32,323 bases of DNA from a virus. This document shows positions 6,078 to 20,550 of this stretch, in pieces. The stretch's first letter is position 1. The number at the start of each line of letters is the position of its first letter. The stretch is taken from positions 1-32,323 of the IMG/VR virus record IMGVR_UViG_3300042520_001094; one strand, 5' to 3'. Under the pieces are notes generated by a model. The model ran no database searches, was not told the DNA's origin, and worked only from the letters and a program-made list of their open reading frames with translations. A program made the position numbers and the translations under genes.

Positions 6078-6728
6078 TTAAAATAAACTTAATTGGCTTG
6101 TTTCTAGTTTTATACGCTTTACAGCACTTTCAAAATACTCTTTATCCAATTCACAAGCTGTTAACTCAAAACCTAAACGGTTACACGCTATTGCTATACT
6201 TCCCGAACCTAAATGAGTATCAAGTATTTTGTCGCCCTCTTTGGCGTAATTCATCAAAAGCCATTCGTATAATTTAACTGGTTTTTGGGTTGGGTGGATG
6301 CGGTTTGGTTGATTTGGATTTTTATCAAATTTTTTAGCACTTGATTTAAATGAAGTCCACGCTAATTCAAACTGTGCAAAAGTAACATCTTCTGAAAAAC
6401 CTTTATCCCATAATAACCAACACGATGAAACTATATCTAAACCTGCAGAAGCCATTTTTTGAACCATGTAATTTCCACCCCAAACAATTTGATTTTTAGA
6501 TATTCTAAATAATTCTTTAAAATATTCTATATTTGGCGTTTCACTATCATTCCCAGCAAATTTATGATAAGGGCTTTTTTTATCTCCTTTTCTCCTACCC
6601 ATGTTTATATTAATATTTATCCCATAAGGCGGGTCAACAATAGCCAAATCAAAATATTTATCGGGATAACGTGCCATTAGTACCATGTTATCCTCATTCG
6701 TTATTTGTATTCTTTCTGTTACATTCAT
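6078..6728 (-). CDS. DNA N6-adenine-type methyltransferase with C-terminal clamp-binding motif
   Basis: This 216-aa beta-class amino-methyltransferase has its catalytic motif DPPYG at 32-36 and the S-adenosylmethionine motif late, as DTHLGSGS at 170-177 (the usual Phe or Pro is His here). IHPTQKPVKLYEWLL between them is the family's conserved linker. The last five residues are QLSLF, the textbook beta-sliding-clamp-binding pentamer, preceded by a charged helix. It would modify phage DNA, probably in step with replication. Target base and sequence are not readable. It is one of three methyltransferases here, and its start overlaps the DnaA-like gene by 4 bases. Confidence 0.9.
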   Translation of the reverse strand: MNVTERIQITNEDNMVLMARYPDKYFDLAIVDPPYGINININMGRRKGDKKSPYHKFAGNDSETPNIEYFKELFRISKNQIVWGGNYMVQKMASAGLDIVSSCWLLWDKGFSEDVTFAQFELAWTSFKSSAKKFDKNPNQPNRIHPTQKPVKLYEWLLMNYAKEGDKILDTHLGSGSIAIACNRLGFELTACELDKEYFESAVKRIKLETSQLSLF

Positions 6729-7036
6729 AACCTACACTTATTAAAATCTTCCTCTAATCTCGGATTGTACTTCATGTACTTAAATTCCTCTTTGTAATGA
6801 ATAATACTTGCATGGTGCCTGTTAATCAACGTTCCAACCTCTCGCAAAGTATAGCCACTATTAAGTGCAAGTATTGAGTAAACAATTCTTGCCCGTACAA
6901 TTTCTTCAAATCGTGTTCGCCCTTTTACCTCTTTCGGGTGTACTTTTAACTTTTCGCATACCATTTCAAAAATGGATATTAAATTGACTTGTTTTGGCTT
7001 CAATTGTAAGCCTACGTAAATTTGTGGGTGTATCAT
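6725..7036 (-). CDS. DnaA domain IV-like DNA-binding protein
   Basis: This 103-aa protein resembles only the C-terminal DNA-binding domain of the replication initiator DnaA. The pattern VKGRTRFEEIVRARIVYSIL (38-56) followed by TLREVGTLINRHHASIIH (63-80) mirrors the DnaA order of an Arg-rich helix and then the helix-turn-helix with its R-D-H-T-T-V-x-H signature, here R-H-H-A-S-I-I-H. There is no AAA+ ATPase. It may bind a DnaA-box-like sequence in the phage origin or compete with host DnaA. It lies in a run of small overlapping genes and its last codons overlap the methyltransferase start. Confidence 0.78.
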   Translation of the reverse strand: MIHPQIYVGLQLKPKQVNLISIFEMVCEKLKVHPKEVKGRTRFEEIVRARIVYSILALNSGYTLREVGTLINRHHASIIHYKEEFKYMKYNPRLEEDFNKCRL

Positions 7037-8742: not shown

Positions 8743-9516
8743 CTAAAAACCGCATCGCTGACAGGCAATCTGATAATATTTTGGTTCTTTTTCGATACCG
8801 ATAAATTTACGGTTAAGATTTTTAGAAGCTACCAATGTACTTCCGCTACCCATTGTAAAATCCAATACAGTTTCATTTTCTTTTGTATATGTTTTAATCA
8901 GGTATTCCATAAGTTCAACTGGCTTTTGCGTTGGGTGTTGTTTACCTTTATTATTAGCATTGCTAAAAGTAATAAGTGTTTTTGGGTATTTTTCATCATA
9001 ATTTCTTAATACTCCATCATTATACTTTACACTTGCACTATCACTACTTGCATATATTTTACCTGTTCTTGGTTTTTGTGCTTCCATTATTGGGTAGTAA
9101 TTATGCTTATTTAAAGCAAAAACACTTATATTTTCGGTATCCCCTAATGGTCTATATTTAGCAACTGCAAAAGCACCAGGTTTTATTTTATTCCAAGTCC
9201 AGTCATACTTATAGTTTTTAATGTTGCTCATTCTTAAAGCACTTGAAAATGGCTCACTTCCAAATAAAACAATAGCCCCATTGGGTTTTATAATCCTGTT
9301 TAGTTGTTCCCACATTTTATCAAAAGGAATTACACTGTCCCACTTACAAGCCGTTGTTCCGTAAGGTGGGTCAGTAATTACACAATCAATACTATTATCA
9401 GGTATCAAAGGCATAATATCTAAGCAATCACCTTGAAATAAAGCACTACCGCTAACATCGGCTATATGCAATAGCGGTTTCGGTGCGTTCTTTAACATTT
9501 GTTCTACTACCATCAT
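8743..9516 (-). CDS. DNA methyltransferase, beta-class (DPPY)
   Basis: This 257-aa amino-methyltransferase has DPPYG at 49-53 and the cofactor motif DFTMGSGST at 219-227, with QHPTQKPVELMEYLI between them, so the catalytic motif comes before the cofactor motif. DPPY favours N6-adenine over N4-cytosine but does not prove it. The start is either of two adjacent ATGs (9516 or 9513). It follows the small HTH regulator by 57 bases. Its sequence is clearly different from the other two methyltransferases, so a different target is likely. Confidence 0.9.
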   Translation of the reverse strand: MMVVEQMLKNAPKPLLHIADVSGSALFQGDCLDIMPLIPDNSIDCVITDPPYGTTACKWDSVIPFDKMWEQLNRIIKPNGAIVLFGSEPFSSALRMSNIKNYKYDWTWNKIKPGAFAVAKYRPLGDTENISVFALNKHNYYPIMEAQKPRTGKIYASSDSASVKYNDGVLRNYDEKYPKTLITFSNANNKGKQHPTQKPVELMEYLIKTYTKENETVLDFTMGSGSTLVASKNLNRKFIGIEKEPKYYQIACQRCGF

Positions 9517-10100: not shown

Positions 10101-10126
10101 TTTTACTTGTTTTTTAATTGATTAAT
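10098..10126 (-). repeat. Gene-junction direct repeat, copy A
   Basis: This segment spans the last codons of the alpha-CTD-like gene, its stop and the next start. It matches 10379-10407 at 26 of 29 positions. Both copies encode INQLKNK-stop and then a short gap and ATG, so the alpha-CTD-like gene is bracketed by direct repeats. Confidence 0.8.
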
Positions 10127-10381
10127 AATAAAATTGTTTTTTAGCTCTAAAAGTTGAACAAGTCCGCTTTTACCTATATTTCTAATTGTCGTTAAATCTT
10201 CATTAGACCTATTCATTAAATCCTCTAAAGTTAAAATATTTACTCTAACTAAAGCACTAAGAAGCCTTGCATCAATATTTAAATCGGATAAATTAGTGTT
10301 TTTATCTCTAGTTAGCAACTCTTTTTTTACTTCTAATTCTAGAGCTTTTAATTCAAATTTTGTCATTTTTGATAATTCCAT
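10103..10381 (-). CDS. RNA polymerase alpha C-terminal domain-like protein
   Basis: This 92-aa protein resembles a free-standing alpha-CTD. DLNIDARLLSALVRVNILTL (33-52) and DLTTIRNIGKSGLVQL (62-77) line up by eye with the E. coli alpha segments around R265 and N294-S299. Residues equal to R265 (here R39), N294 (N68), G296 (G70) and K297 (K71) are kept; N268, K298 and S299 are changed. The fold is a helix-hairpin-helix type that binds DNA or sigma factors. It lacks the alpha N-terminal domain. It could redirect host RNA polymerase or simply bind DNA. Confidence 0.75.
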   Translation of the reverse strand: MELSKMTKFELKALELEVKKELLTRDKNTNLSDLNIDARLLSALVRVNILTLEDLMNRSNEDLTTIRNIGKSGLVQLLELKNNFIINQLKNK

Positions 10382-16180: not shown

Positions 16181-16492
16181 TTATTTATGTAATTTTTCTA
16201 ATTTTCTTAAGTAAGAAATACAAAAGGCAATATCCTTTTTAGTAATATTAAACCATTCGCCCTCTAATCTTTTATCTTTAAACTCCTCATGTAAAAACCT
16301 TTCAGCTTCCATAGCCATTGAGCATTTTTCAAAAGCTATTATTTCAGCTCCAAAAGGTGCATAAGTTTTAAGTTGCTCAAACCTATCCATAGGATTGTTT
16401 TTCGCTGAATAACCAATCTTTATTGGCTTTAATTTCTTGTGCTTAAAGAAGTAAACACAACCGTCTTTTTTTTCAAAAAGTTTATGTTCCAT
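16181..16492 (-). CDS. T5orf172/MUG113-type GIY-YIG protein
   Basis: This 103-aa protein fits the T5orf172 branch of the GIY-YIG fold: CVYFFKHKKLKPIKIGYS at the start, NPMDRFEQLKTYAPFG, a helix with E and H (AERFLHEEF), and GEWFNIT near the end. Family members are small nuclease-like domains, often in phages; their targets are unclear. It is the first gene downstream of the non-coding control region and has a long, structured leader, so it is probably expressed early together with the primase-helicase 13 bases beyond it. Confidence 0.8.
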   Translation of the reverse strand: MEHKLFEKKDGCVYFFKHKKLKPIKIGYSAKNNPMDRFEQLKTYAPFGAEIIAFEKCSMAMEAERFLHEEFKDKRLEGEWFNITKKDIAFCISYLRKLEKLHK

Positions 16493-17204: not shown

Positions 17205-17951
17205 TTAAAGGTTTATACGTTTATTAATGATTTGACAATATTCGGAAGATATTTCACTACCTATCCAATTCCGTTTATTTAAAATACTCATTTTAGCTGT
17301 TGTTCCACTTCCCATAAATGGGTCATAAATTAAATCGTTCTCATTACTCCAACTTAAAATATGGTCATTTGCAAGCACTTCTGGAAATACGGCAGGGTGT
17401 TCGCCCTTTTGAGGAGCTATATACCAATAGTTGTTTCTTCTGCTAAATTCTGCACTTGGTTTACGCTTTTCTATTTTGTGTTCACCAGTTACTAATCTCC
17501 TGCCTACTCCACTTTTGTCTTTACCAAAAGAAGCGTTTGGTTTGTCATAAATTAGATTTGTGGTATTTATTTTACCTTTTGAAAATACAAACATATATTC
17601 AAAGTTTTGTGTGTAACACTTATTGCTTCCTACTGCACCACCACCATCTTTAATCCAAATCATTGTGTCGTGCAAATTAAAACCAATCTCTTTGAAGTAT
17701 AATGCTTGTTTAAATGATGTCCCGCTTTCATTACCTTGAACAGTTGCATCCGAAATAACCCAAACTAATACACCACCATCTTTTGTAATTCTAAATAACT
17801 CTTTTGCAATATCTTCAAATGGGAAAGAATATCCGTTGTAAGTTCTCAATCCATCGTAAGGCGGACTTGTTACAGTTAAATCCACAAAACAATCAGGCAT
17901 CTTTGCCATTGTCTCAAGACAATTTTCGTTGTATAATTGATTTATTTCCAT
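17205..17951 (-). CDS. DNA methyltransferase, beta-class (SPPY)
   Basis: This 248-aa amino-methyltransferase has its catalytic motif as TSPPYD (28-33) and the cofactor motif DPFMGSGTT at 210-218, with EHPAVFPEVLANDHILSWS between them. SPPY is commonest in N4-cytosine enzymes but also occurs in N6-adenine ones. It starts inside the end of the 140-aa gene upstream (10-base overlap). It lies in the accessory region between the lysis cassette and the control region, far from the other two methyltransferases. Protection from host restriction is the likely role. Confidence 0.9.
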   Translation of the reverse strand: MEINQLYNENCLETMAKMPDCFVDLTVTSPPYDGLRTYNGYSFPFEDIAKELFRITKDGGVLVWVISDATVQGNESGTSFKQALYFKEIGFNLHDTMIWIKDGGGAVGSNKCYTQNFEYMFVFSKGKINTTNLIYDKPNASFGKDKSGVGRRLVTGEHKIEKRKPSAEFSRRNNYWYIAPQKGEHPAVFPEVLANDHILSWSNENDLIYDPFMGSGTTAKMSILNKRNWIGSEISSEYCQIINKRINL

Positions 17952-18786: not shown

Positions 18787-19173
18787 CTAAAATTTATCTT
18801 CTATGATTAATTTAAACGGTTGCCCCTTTGTAATGGCTTCAAGAGTTGCGTGTGCCTTTCTGCTTTGTGTGATAGTGTTTTGCTCGGTTACTTCCATTCC
18901 TAAAGCGATGCAACCATTTAGTTGAGTTGAAAAGTTTGCAGGGTGTATTCTTATACCAGCACGACCACGTACGCCCCGAACCTCGTATAACATACGTTTA
19001 AACCTGTTCGAGTAAGTCATAAGCACGTTGTAACTACCCTGAGGAATACATGAAACCATAGGCGTGTTATTTAACCAACCACGCTCCAAAGTGTGTAATT
19101 CAATACCGTTAATATGTAATTTACCCAACGTTAAATTTGCGTCGGTGTAGGATCTAATTATTTTCGCTTCCAA
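18787..19173 (-). CDS. DUF5675-like protein in the endolysin position
   Basis: This 128-aa protein matches the DUF5675 pattern: IRSYTDANLTLGKLHINGIE, TLERGW, then IPQGSYNVLMTYSNRFKRML and, near 76-92, IHPANFSTQLNGCIALG. The His..Gly-Cys arrangement resembles the active site of L,D-transpeptidase-like enzymes, but catalysis is unproven. It directly follows the holin, where an endolysin is expected, and no other lysin is present. The start appears to be TTG at 19173, overlapping the holin end by 20 bases; no in-frame ATG occurs early enough to keep the domain. Confidence 0.78.
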   Translation of the reverse strand: MEAKIIRSYTDANLTLGKLHINGIELHTLERGWLNNTPMVSCIPQGSYNVLMTYSNRFKRMLYEVRGVRGRAGIRIHPANFSTQLNGCIALGMEVTEQNTITQSRKAHATLEAITKGQPFKLIIEDKF

Positions 19174-19417
19174 TATCTTTTATTTTTTCGGTTAAATTCT
19201 TAGCCACGTAAACGCCAACGATCAATATAATAGCACCCCCAACAATCTCAAACCAACTTTGATTTATTGCACCGTCGGTTATTAGTGTTACACCTGAAGT
19301 CATAAGCACACCACCGCCACCCATTTGTAGTATTCCGTTGGTTTTTGTTTTTGTATCACTTTGTTTAAGTGCTTTAATTATCTCAACTGGGTTAATTATT
19401 TTTAGTAAATTTCTCAT
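19154..19417 (-). CDS. Holin-like small membrane protein
   Basis: From the ATG at 19417 the protein is 87 aa. It has a basic N-terminus, two hydrophobic spans (about GVLMTSGVTLITDG, and EIVGGAIILIVGVYVA) and a charged C-terminus (EKIKDIGSENN), the size and topology of a phage holin. I chose 19417 because its ATG overlaps the PAS gene's TGA in an ATGA, a typical coupled start; an earlier ATG (19429) and GTG (19435) are possible. It would let the lysin reach the cell wall. Confidence 0.75.
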   Translation of the reverse strand: MRNLLKIINPVEIIKALKQSDTKTKTNGILQMGGGGVLMTSGVTLITDGAINQSWFEIVGGAIILIVGVYVAKNLTEKIKDIGSENN

Positions 19418-19809
19418 ATATTTCTGCATGTACACACTAAGTAATTATTCGGAAGCAAAGTTAAATAAACTTCTTCATTAACTTCATCGCCATTTTTTTT
19501 ATAACCAATATATTTGCCGTTCCATTTTCCGTTTGCAAATATAATAGGAAAAACGATTGTTTTAAAAAAATCAATATCATTTGGCTTGTATAATATCTCC
19601 CACGTTTTGCCGATTAATTCTTCAACCGTATAACCAAACATTTCTGCATGAGCTTCGTTAATATAAATGTACTCGCCATTTTCGTTAAGTATGGCTATCC
19701 CCTCGTGACTGGTATTAATTGCTAACCTTAGCAACTCATTCTGCTTAAATAACAAGCTAATTTTGTCGCTTAAACTTTTGATTTCTTCAATGTTACTTAA
19801 AGATTTCAT
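19414..19809 (-). CDS. Free-standing PAS domain protein
   Basis: This 131-aa protein has a short coiled-coil lead (1-25) and one complete PAS domain (about 25-129). The family hallmarks are in order: LRLAINTSHEGIAILNENG, YIYINEAHAEMFGYTVEELIGKTW (47-70), then a later strand segment KWNGKYIGYKKNGDEV and LLPNNYLVCTC. No kinase, DNA-binding or cyclase domain is attached. PAS domains sense ligands, light or redox state, or mediate pairing. It overlaps the holin start by four bases, so its translation is tied to lysis. Confidence 0.88.
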   Translation of the reverse strand: MKSLSNIEEIKSLSDKISLLFKQNELLRLAINTSHEGIAILNENGEYIYINEAHAEMFGYTVEELIGKTWEILYKPNDIDFFKTIVFPIIFANGKWNGKYIGYKKNGDEVNEEVYLTLLPNNYLVCTCRNI

Positions 19810-19810
19810 A

Positions 19811-20137
19811 TTAAATATTTTTTAATATCCACGAAATTATAAAGCCAACAACAACCTCAATTGCGATTAATAATCCTATTGCTTTAGACCATTTATTTTT
19901 TTGATCGTAAACCTCATCTTTAACTTCCTTCATTTGTCTTGGCGACCATGTTTCTGTAACTTCTTTTTGCCACATTTTAATGTCCTGAATTTCCTTTTCG
20001 GTGGTATGAACCTTAGCAATATCACGTCGTAAATTTTCAAATTTTGAGTCAATATCTTCTTTAAGTTTGTCGATTGCGTTTCTATTACGCTCTAACTCGT
20101 TTAAAATTAGCTTTGTGAAGTCGTCAATTTCTTTCAT
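19811..20137 (-). CDS. Coiled-coil protein with C-terminal membrane anchor
   Basis: This 108-aa protein is a charged coiled coil for residues 1-75 (ELERNRNAIDKLKEDIDSKF and onward) followed by one hydrophobic span near the end (AIGLLIAIEVVVGFIISWIL). The layout is like XhlA-type hemolysin or other accessory membrane proteins of phage lysis cassettes. It probably sits in the inner membrane with the coil in the cytoplasm, where it could partner with the holin or the PAS protein. It overlaps the previous gene by 4 bases. Confidence 0.7.
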   Translation of the reverse strand: MKEIDDFTKLILNELERNRNAIDKLKEDIDSKFENLRRDIAKVHTTEKEIQDIKMWQKEVTETWSPRQMKEVKDEVYDQKNKWSKAIGLLIAIEVVVGFIISWILKNI

Positions 20138-20550
20138 TTTATTTTTCTAATCGCCTTAAAAATTTTCATGTAATAAGTTAGTTCTTTTACGTTTCCTTTG
20201 TTTTTGTGGTGTTTTTTGTATTTTAAAGCCCACGCCAAACGTACACCAATATAACGTTTGTAAGCTATGTATTTGCCTAAGCCCCTACGTAACATCATTT
20301 CAAGAAATATCTTATCCGCAACCTTACCACCTCTACCCGTTATCCAATGGAAATCATGAACGAAGCAATCGAATACAAAAAAATCATAGTGTAATTCAGC
20401 CACCGAAGTACAACCGTTGTAATCAGTCATAAAGTCCCAATCATTAGAGTACACCGCTTCTTCAATTAAACGGTAATGTATAGCATCTAAGTTGCAGTTC
20501 TTAGCGTGCTCAAATAAGCTGTCTATTATTTCGCTTCGTGTTCTATTCAT
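20134..20550 (-). CDS. DUF1353-like or phospholipase A2-like protein
   Basis: This 138-aa protein has CFVHDFHW (62-69) followed by VADKIFLEMMLRRGLGKYIA (77-96). The same order of His-Asp and then Ala-Asp-x-x-Phe occurs in DUF1353 phage proteins and, more loosely, in prokaryotic phospholipase A2 (HD pair, later Asp). An earlier TDYNGCTSV fits the DUF1353 first motif poorly. The C-terminus is strongly basic. If it has an active site, H65/D66 and D79 are the residues to examine. Its place in the lysis cassette suits a membrane- or envelope-acting enzyme. Confidence 0.6.
   Translation of the reverse strand: MNRTRSEIIDSLFEHAKNCNLDAIHYRLIEEAVYSNDWDFMTDYNGCTSVAELHYDFFVFDCFVHDFHWITGRGGKVADKIFLEMMLRRGLGKYIAYKRYIGVRLAWALKYKKHHKNKGNVKELTYYMKIFKAIRKIK

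What the first reader, a model, noticed from the sequence alone, without database searches (positions are those of the whole stretch)
19414..19809. A lone PAS sensor coupled to the holin gene
A complete PAS domain with no output domain overlaps the holin start by ATGA and follows a coiled-coil membrane-anchored gene. PAS domains are rare in small phages. A sensor that adjusts lysis timing to redox, light or metabolite state, acting through the neighbouring coiled coil, would be a new kind of lysis control.
Basis: partly seen in the sequence, partly recalled or inferred. Interest (0 to 1): 0.75.

Follow-up and report, generated by a model that had tools for sequence, protein, structure and literature searches.

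The report
PAS sensor in phage lysis cassette
A small uncultured phage, probably of flavobacteria, carries a single sensor domain (PAS) paired with a membrane-anchored coiled-coil protein among its cell-bursting genes; the pair is conserved, under strong selection and exchanged between phages as a unit, so it may let the phage tune when it bursts its host, although no function has been tested.

Summary
Window 19414-19809 (-) encodes a complete 131-aa PAS domain with no output domain (PAS_9 8.8e-12; AlphaFold pLDDT 84), overlapping the next gene by ATGA. Relatives sharpen the picture. In 7 of 7 intact copies, and at the cut edge of an eighth, the PAS gene lies exactly 1 nt behind a 108-aa gene (coiled coil plus C-terminal membrane helix). 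Both are under strong purifying selection. The pair sits among lysis genes whose identity varies (different holin-like genes, DUF5675, M15 peptidase, amidase, spanin-like), has moved between cassettes as a block, and in a close sibling phage is replaced exactly by a 68-aa holin-like gene. The ATGA overlap and this particular holin are not conserved: the real partner is the 108-aa protein. LOV photochemistry is excluded by sequence and a DosP/FixL-type haem ligand is absent; ligand and function are unknown. Isolated Cellulophaga phages carry membrane-anchored PAS-like proteins (fold evidence only) in similar places. Best reading: a lysis-timing module in which the PAS protein gates the coiled-coil membrane protein. 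Lysis role likely; sensing unproven. No earlier description was found in the library searched.

The parts
19414..19809 (-). Lone PAS gene, 131 aa; no output domain
   Evidence: Pfam/NCBIfam PAS matches, AlphaFold and Foldseek, dN/dS about 0.04-0.12 between copies
19714..19809 (-). PAS residues 1-32: predicted N-terminal helix, candidate contact to the 108-aa coiled coil
   Evidence: AlphaFold helix 2-32; heptad pattern here not significant (p 0.17); contact is inference
19426..19434 (-). Codons of C126 and C128 (CTC motif), both invariant in the phage copies
   Evidence: Alignment A1; C126 also invariant in bacterial relatives
19811..20137 (-). 108-aa partner gene: coiled coil then C-terminal membrane helix; 1 nt upstream of PAS in all 7 copies with both genes intact
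   Evidence: Heptad and hydropathy analysis, AlphaFold all-helical, conservation and spacing
19823..19879 (-). Membrane segment of the 108-aa protein (residues 87-105), preceded by lysines 82 and 85, which suggests the coil is cytoplasmic
   Evidence: Hydropathy; topology by the positive-inside rule, inference
19154..19417 (-). 87-aa small membrane protein, putative holin; start overlaps the PAS stop by ATGA
   Evidence: Sequence, hydropathy; no holin HMM match; occurs without PAS in L030 and L031
18787..19173 (-). DUF5675 protein, putative cell-wall enzyme; same family follows the PAS-like gene of Cellulophaga phage Ingeline_1
   Evidence: PF18925 7.7e-28; Ingeline1_38 PF18925 1.7e-20; lysis role inferred from place
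20134..20550 (-). 138-aa gene upstream, overlaps the 108-aa start by ATGA; weak DUF1353 likeness
   Evidence: the left edge of the module swap in L030/L044 lies at its stop codon

Best explanation
The 108-aa gene and the PAS gene form one two-gene module of the lysis cassette. The 108-aa protein is anchored in the inner membrane by its C-terminal helix with its coiled coil in the cytoplasm. The PAS protein is soluble and binds it there, most simply through its N-terminal helix. The pair acts as a holin partner or antiholin: the PAS protein restrains or promotes clustering of the 108-aa protein (and through it the holin), and its pocket or cysteines tie that step to a cytoplasmic cue, so lysis timing follows host state. 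Shown: the PAS domain, the strict pairing, selection, exchange as a block, a place among lysis genes, and replacement by a holin-like gene in a sibling. Inferred: physical contact, role in lysis, topology. Conjecture: sensing of a ligand or redox state.
For: Pairing at 1-nt spacing in 7 of 7 copies plus the cut edge of L025. Purifying selection on both genes. Neighbours are putative or recognised lysis genes in every copy: amidase (Amidase_2 1.4e-18, phrog_822 lysis), M15 peptidase (phrog_894 lysis), DUF5675, small membrane proteins. Block exchange: L005's pair is 95% identical to L004's despite different neighbours, but 88-91% to L007's despite the same neighbours. Natural replacement: in L030/L044 the pair is swapped exactly for a 68-aa membrane gene with weak holin likeness, flanks 94% and 88% identical. 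No signal or membrane segment in PAS. PAS-like, membrane-anchored proteins lie in lysis regions of isolated Cellulophaga phages (fold evidence only).
Against: No functional data. The 87-aa gene has no holin HMM match and the holin likeness of the replacing gene is below cut-offs. Contact between the two proteins was not modelled. PAS is dispensable in sibling phages. The heptad pattern of the PAS helix is not significant. The copies come from few lineages (two clades about 72% identical).
Confidence: 0.45

Rival explanations
1. Host-signalling decoy: the PAS protein pairs with PAS domains of host sensor kinases or soaks up their ligand and rewires the host late in infection; the 108-aa protein only holds it at the membrane where kinases sit.
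For: Closest cellular relatives are PAS domains of hybrid histidine kinases, 38-45% identical. The phage also encodes lone RNA polymerase alpha-CTD and lone DnaA C-terminal domains, a pattern of free-standing host regulator domains.
Against: Place among lysis genes in every copy and exchange with a holin-like gene; late gene block rather than an early one. Close host homologues (Bacteroidota) were not found by the one genome scan.
Confidence: 0.2
2. Superinfection or defence accessory: a small cargo cassette in a variable slot next to the lysis genes, without a part in lysis itself.
For: The slot is variable (pair or 68-aa gene) and the pair moves as a block.
Against: The alternative occupant looks holin-like rather than defence-like; the pair keeps overlapping or abutting neighbours within the lysis gene string. 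The PADLOC library was not searched.
Confidence: 0.17
3. Virion or structural role, for example a tail-associated protein.
For: The module lies just after tail and fibre-type genes.
Against: It lies among small membrane-protein genes. The PAS-like proteins of phi19:1 and phi18:3 carry no virion-proteomics note although those genomes are annotated from MS/MS.
Confidence: 0.06

Closest known systems
VqmA-phi of Vibrio phage VP882 and relatives (PMC12802170)
   Same: A phage-encoded PAS domain that reads a host cue and affects when the phage lyses its host
   Different: VqmA-phi has a DNA-binding domain and acts by transcription of qtip on the lysis-lysogeny choice; here the PAS is alone and lies in the lysis cassette
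T4 antiholin RIII (PMC8385771)
   Same: Works like: a small soluble cytoplasmic phage protein that binds the cytoplasmic part of a membrane lysis protein
   Different: RIII is not described as a PAS sensor; no sequence comparison was made here and antiholin function is untested for this PAS
XhlA/XhlB/XlyA lysis genes of prophage PBSX (PMC5589764)
   Same: A small membrane protein that works with a holin, encoded just upstream of holin and endolysin; the coil-plus-C-terminal-TM build of XhlA is from my own knowledge
   Different: No sequence match of the 108-aa protein to XhlA; PBSX has no PAS gene between them
Short LOV proteins such as PpSB1-LOV and DsLOV (PMC4335406; PDB 3sw1, 7a6p)
   Same: Free-standing PAS-fold sensors with helical extensions and no output domain; among the Foldseek neighbours
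   Different: LOV adduct cysteine is Trp70 here; those are bacterial, not phage, genes
phrog_10199 / phrog_31932 proteins of Cellulophaga phages (phi3:1 gp11, phi18:3 gp090, Ingeline1_36, phi19:1 gp108)
   Same: Membrane helix, further helix and PAS-like fold, next to holin-like, endolysin and spanin-like genes; Ingeline_1 has the same DUF5675 family downstream
   Different: One polypeptide instead of two, anchor at the N-terminal side, no detectable sequence relation

Membership tests
PAS domain (PF13426, TIGR00229) | Curated profile score over the family cut-off | tested here: met
   45.7 bits against 27; 56.9 against 22.9
PAS domain (PF13426, TIGR00229) | PAS fold | tested here: met
   AlphaFold pLDDT 84 and Foldseek matches to PAS structures
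PAS sensor | Binds a ligand or cofactor and changes state | not testable with these tools
   Needs purified protein
LOV photoreceptor | Conserved flavin-adduct cysteine | tested here: not met
   W70 aligns with the Cys of SBW25-LOV and PF5-LOV
Haem PAS of DosP/FixL type | Proximal His on the F helix | tested here: not met
   No His in helix 76-93; the only His are H35 and H54; position of the ligand in DosP/FixL from established knowledge
FAD PAS (NifL/MmoS type) | Bound FAD | not testable with these tools
   Profile matches to 3ewk and 2gj3, but pocket residues were not examined
XhlA | Sequence match of the 108-aa protein to the XhlA profile | tested here: not met
   Not among Pfam matches at E <= 1
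XhlA | Small protein with coil, then C-terminal TM, upstream of holin and endolysin genes | tested here: met
   architecture alone does not make it a member
Holin (87-aa protein) | Holin family profile match | tested here: not met
   No match
Holin (87-aa protein) | Permeabilises the inner membrane and triggers lysis | not testable with these tools
   Needs expression
Antiholin (PAS protein) | Binds holin or holin partner and delays lysis | not testable with these tools
   Needs expression
VqmA-type phage quorum receptor | PAS followed by a DNA-binding domain | tested here: not met
   The ORF ends with the PAS domain

The most novel reading that the evidence does not exclude
A two-gene lysis switch in which a free-standing cytoplasmic PAS sensor controls a tail-anchored coiled-coil protein, so that a phage reads host physiology directly at the lysis step without transcription; membrane-anchored one-piece versions exist in Cellulophaga phages, making this a general kind of lysis control in phages of Bacteroidota.
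Probability: 0.27. Interest if true: 0.85.

Novelty: new variant of a known kind. Interest (0 to 1): 0.6.

Why it matters
Lysis timing is usually described as a clock set by holin accumulation, with few known inputs (superinfection in T4, loss of membrane energy). A PAS protein wired to a membrane lysis protein would give a phage a direct physiological input at the last step. The module is small and naturally swappable, has a natural PAS-less sibling for comparison, and isolated Cellulophaga phages with analogous genes make the question testable now.

Tried and rejected
LOV-type light sensing: rejected, the adduct Cys is Trp. Haem of DosP/FixL type: no His on the right helix. Coupling to this particular holin through the ATGA overlap: rejected as the essential feature, since the overlap is in 3 of 7 copies and L002 has it with a non-holin gene. 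Chance or spurious ORF: rejected by selection and conservation. XhlA membership: no match. Sequence relation to the Cellulophaga PAS-like proteins: no support (hhalign probability 0.04; no PDB hit). Search for the same PAS subfamily in other viruses with a profile including bacterial relatives: only the same contigs. Further scans with other copies gave no new contigs. Relatives of the PAS, 108-aa or 87-aa protein among named phages: none. Literature on a phage PAS in lysis: nothing found; the library holds open papers only.

Full report
What was checked. The window is a whole IMG/VR virus record of 32,323 bases with portal, terminase, protease, capsid, tape-measure, replication and methyltransferase genes, nearly all on the minus strand. 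Its primase-type protein is closest to flavobacterial phages, so the host is probably one of the Bacteroidota.

The PAS gene. ORF 19414-19809 (-) codes for 131 aa. Five Pfam PAS models pass their cut-offs (best 8.8e-12), the NCBIfam S-box model gives 2.2e-15, the AlphaFold model has pLDDT 84 with a long N-terminal helix followed by the PAS fold, and it matches hundreds of solved structures, the best being PAS domains. There is nothing after the domain. The closest cellular relatives found, 38-45% identical, are PAS domains within long sensor kinases of cyanobacteria and Alphaproteobacteria; the phage protein stops where those continue into the linker. PHROGs has no match and 50,697 named phage records hold no relative.

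Gene packing. On the minus strand the order is: 138-aa gene, ATGA overlap, 108-aa gene, 1-nt gap, PAS gene, ATGA overlap, 87-aa small membrane protein, 20-nt overlap, DUF5675 gene. The 108-aa protein has a strong coiled-coil pattern over residues 1-56 and one C-terminal transmembrane segment; AlphaFold gives two long helices.

Relatives. Seven IMG/VR contigs encode the PAS protein, one of them only its last 26 residues, and an eighth contig is cut just after the PAS start. Wherever the upstream DNA is held, the 108-aa gene is there, 1 nt away. What lies around the pair varies: 87-aa gene and DUF5675 (window, L003), a homologue of the 87-aa gene and an M15 peptidase (L005, L007), a spanin-like gene of about 171 aa with an amidase upstream (L002, L004, L006). 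The PAS-holin overlap is therefore incidental and the 108-aa gene is the partner. dN/dS between copies is about 0.04-0.12 for PAS and mostly 0.02-0.13 for the 108-aa gene, up to 0.19 in one pair; several distant pairs are saturated at synonymous sites.

Exchange as a block. L005 and L007 share their flanks (95% upstream, 91-92% downstream), yet L005's 108-aa/PAS pair is 95% identical to that of L004, which has other neighbours, and only 88-91% to L007's. In the sibling L030 (L044), 94% identical upstream and 88% downstream, the pair is replaced, gene boundary to gene boundary, by one 68-aa membrane protein with weak holin likeness (Phage_holin_2_1 0.0049, phrog_20 holin 0.01; the L031 counterpart 0.002; all below curated strength). 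Neither the PAS nor the 108-aa gene occurs elsewhere in that record. A holin-like gene and the pair thus occupy the same slot.

Other phages. A Foldseek search of predicted viral structures with the PAS model returned, besides giant-virus and phage kinases, a 240-aa protein of Cellulophaga phage phi19:1 and a 172-aa protein of phi18:3. By length I take these to be gp108 and gp090. Both, and relatives in phi3:1, Ingeline and Nekkels phages, have a hydrophobic helix, a further helix and the PAS-like part, and lie in lysis regions: phi3:1 gp10 (3 TM), gp11 (PAS-like), gp12 (L-alanoyl-D-glutamate peptidase), gp13 and gp14 (spanin-like); phi18:3 gp088 (2 TM), gp090, gp091, gp092 (GH108), gp094 and gp095 (spanin-like); Ingeline_1 35 (2 TM), 36, 37 (1 TM), 38 (DUF5675, 1.7e-20). 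Lysis genes, possible antiholins and spanins in Ingeline and Nekkels are noted in PMC8776804, which does not mention PAS. The PAS assignment in these proteins rests on fold similarity only: profile comparison and a PDB profile search gave no support.

Mechanism. The best reading is that the 108-aa protein, anchored in the membrane with its coil in the cytoplasm, is a holin partner or antiholin whose clustering is controlled by the soluble PAS protein. The parallel for a cytoplasmic regulator is T4 RIII (PMC8385771), for a small membrane partner of a holin XhlA of PBSX (PMC5589764), and for a phage PAS sensor VqmA-phi (PMC12802170). What the PAS senses, if anything, is open. LOV photochemistry is excluded (W70), DosP/FixL-type haem is unlikely, and the conserved C126/C128 (with an extra CxxC in L004 and L006) make thiol redox or metal worth testing.

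Limits. No function is shown. Holin labels are weak. The number of independent copies is small. The second most likely view is that the protein interferes with host PAS kinases, which gains some weight from two other stand-alone host regulator domains in the same genome.

Noticed in passing
window 10103-10381 (-): 92-aa ORF whose only domain is an RNA polymerase alpha-subunit C-terminal domain (PF03118 7.5e-8; PDB alpha chains 1.4e-5); no relative among named phages. A free-standing alpha-CTD could redirect host transcription.
   Followed up: partly
window 6725-7036 (-): 103-aa ORF with a lone DnaA C-terminal DNA-binding domain (PF08299 6.3e-10); lone DnaA-type genes are also annotated in Cellulophaga phages phi19:1 and phi18:3.
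   Followed up: no
window 6078-6728, 8743-9516, 17205-17951 (-): Three separate N6/N4-type DNA methyltransferase genes in one 32-kb phage.
   Followed up: no
L030 3811-4017 (= L044 4408-4614): 68-aa membrane protein gene that replaces the 108-aa/PAS pair exactly between gene boundaries in a close sibling; weak holin likeness.
   Followed up: yes
L004 6001-6417 and L006 6001-6417: PAS copies with a C-terminal extension VDICKPCNK, adding a CxxC after the CTC motif; possible metal or redox site.
   Followed up: no
L057 3911-4546, L054 39102-39620, L056 3935-4537, L053 6203-6925: Membrane-anchored PAS-like proteins (phrog_10199, phrog_31932; unknown function) in lysis regions of isolated Cellulophaga phages.
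   Followed up: partly
window 16181-16492 (-): 103-aa T5orf172/MUG113 (GIY-YIG-type) domain protein.
   Followed up: no
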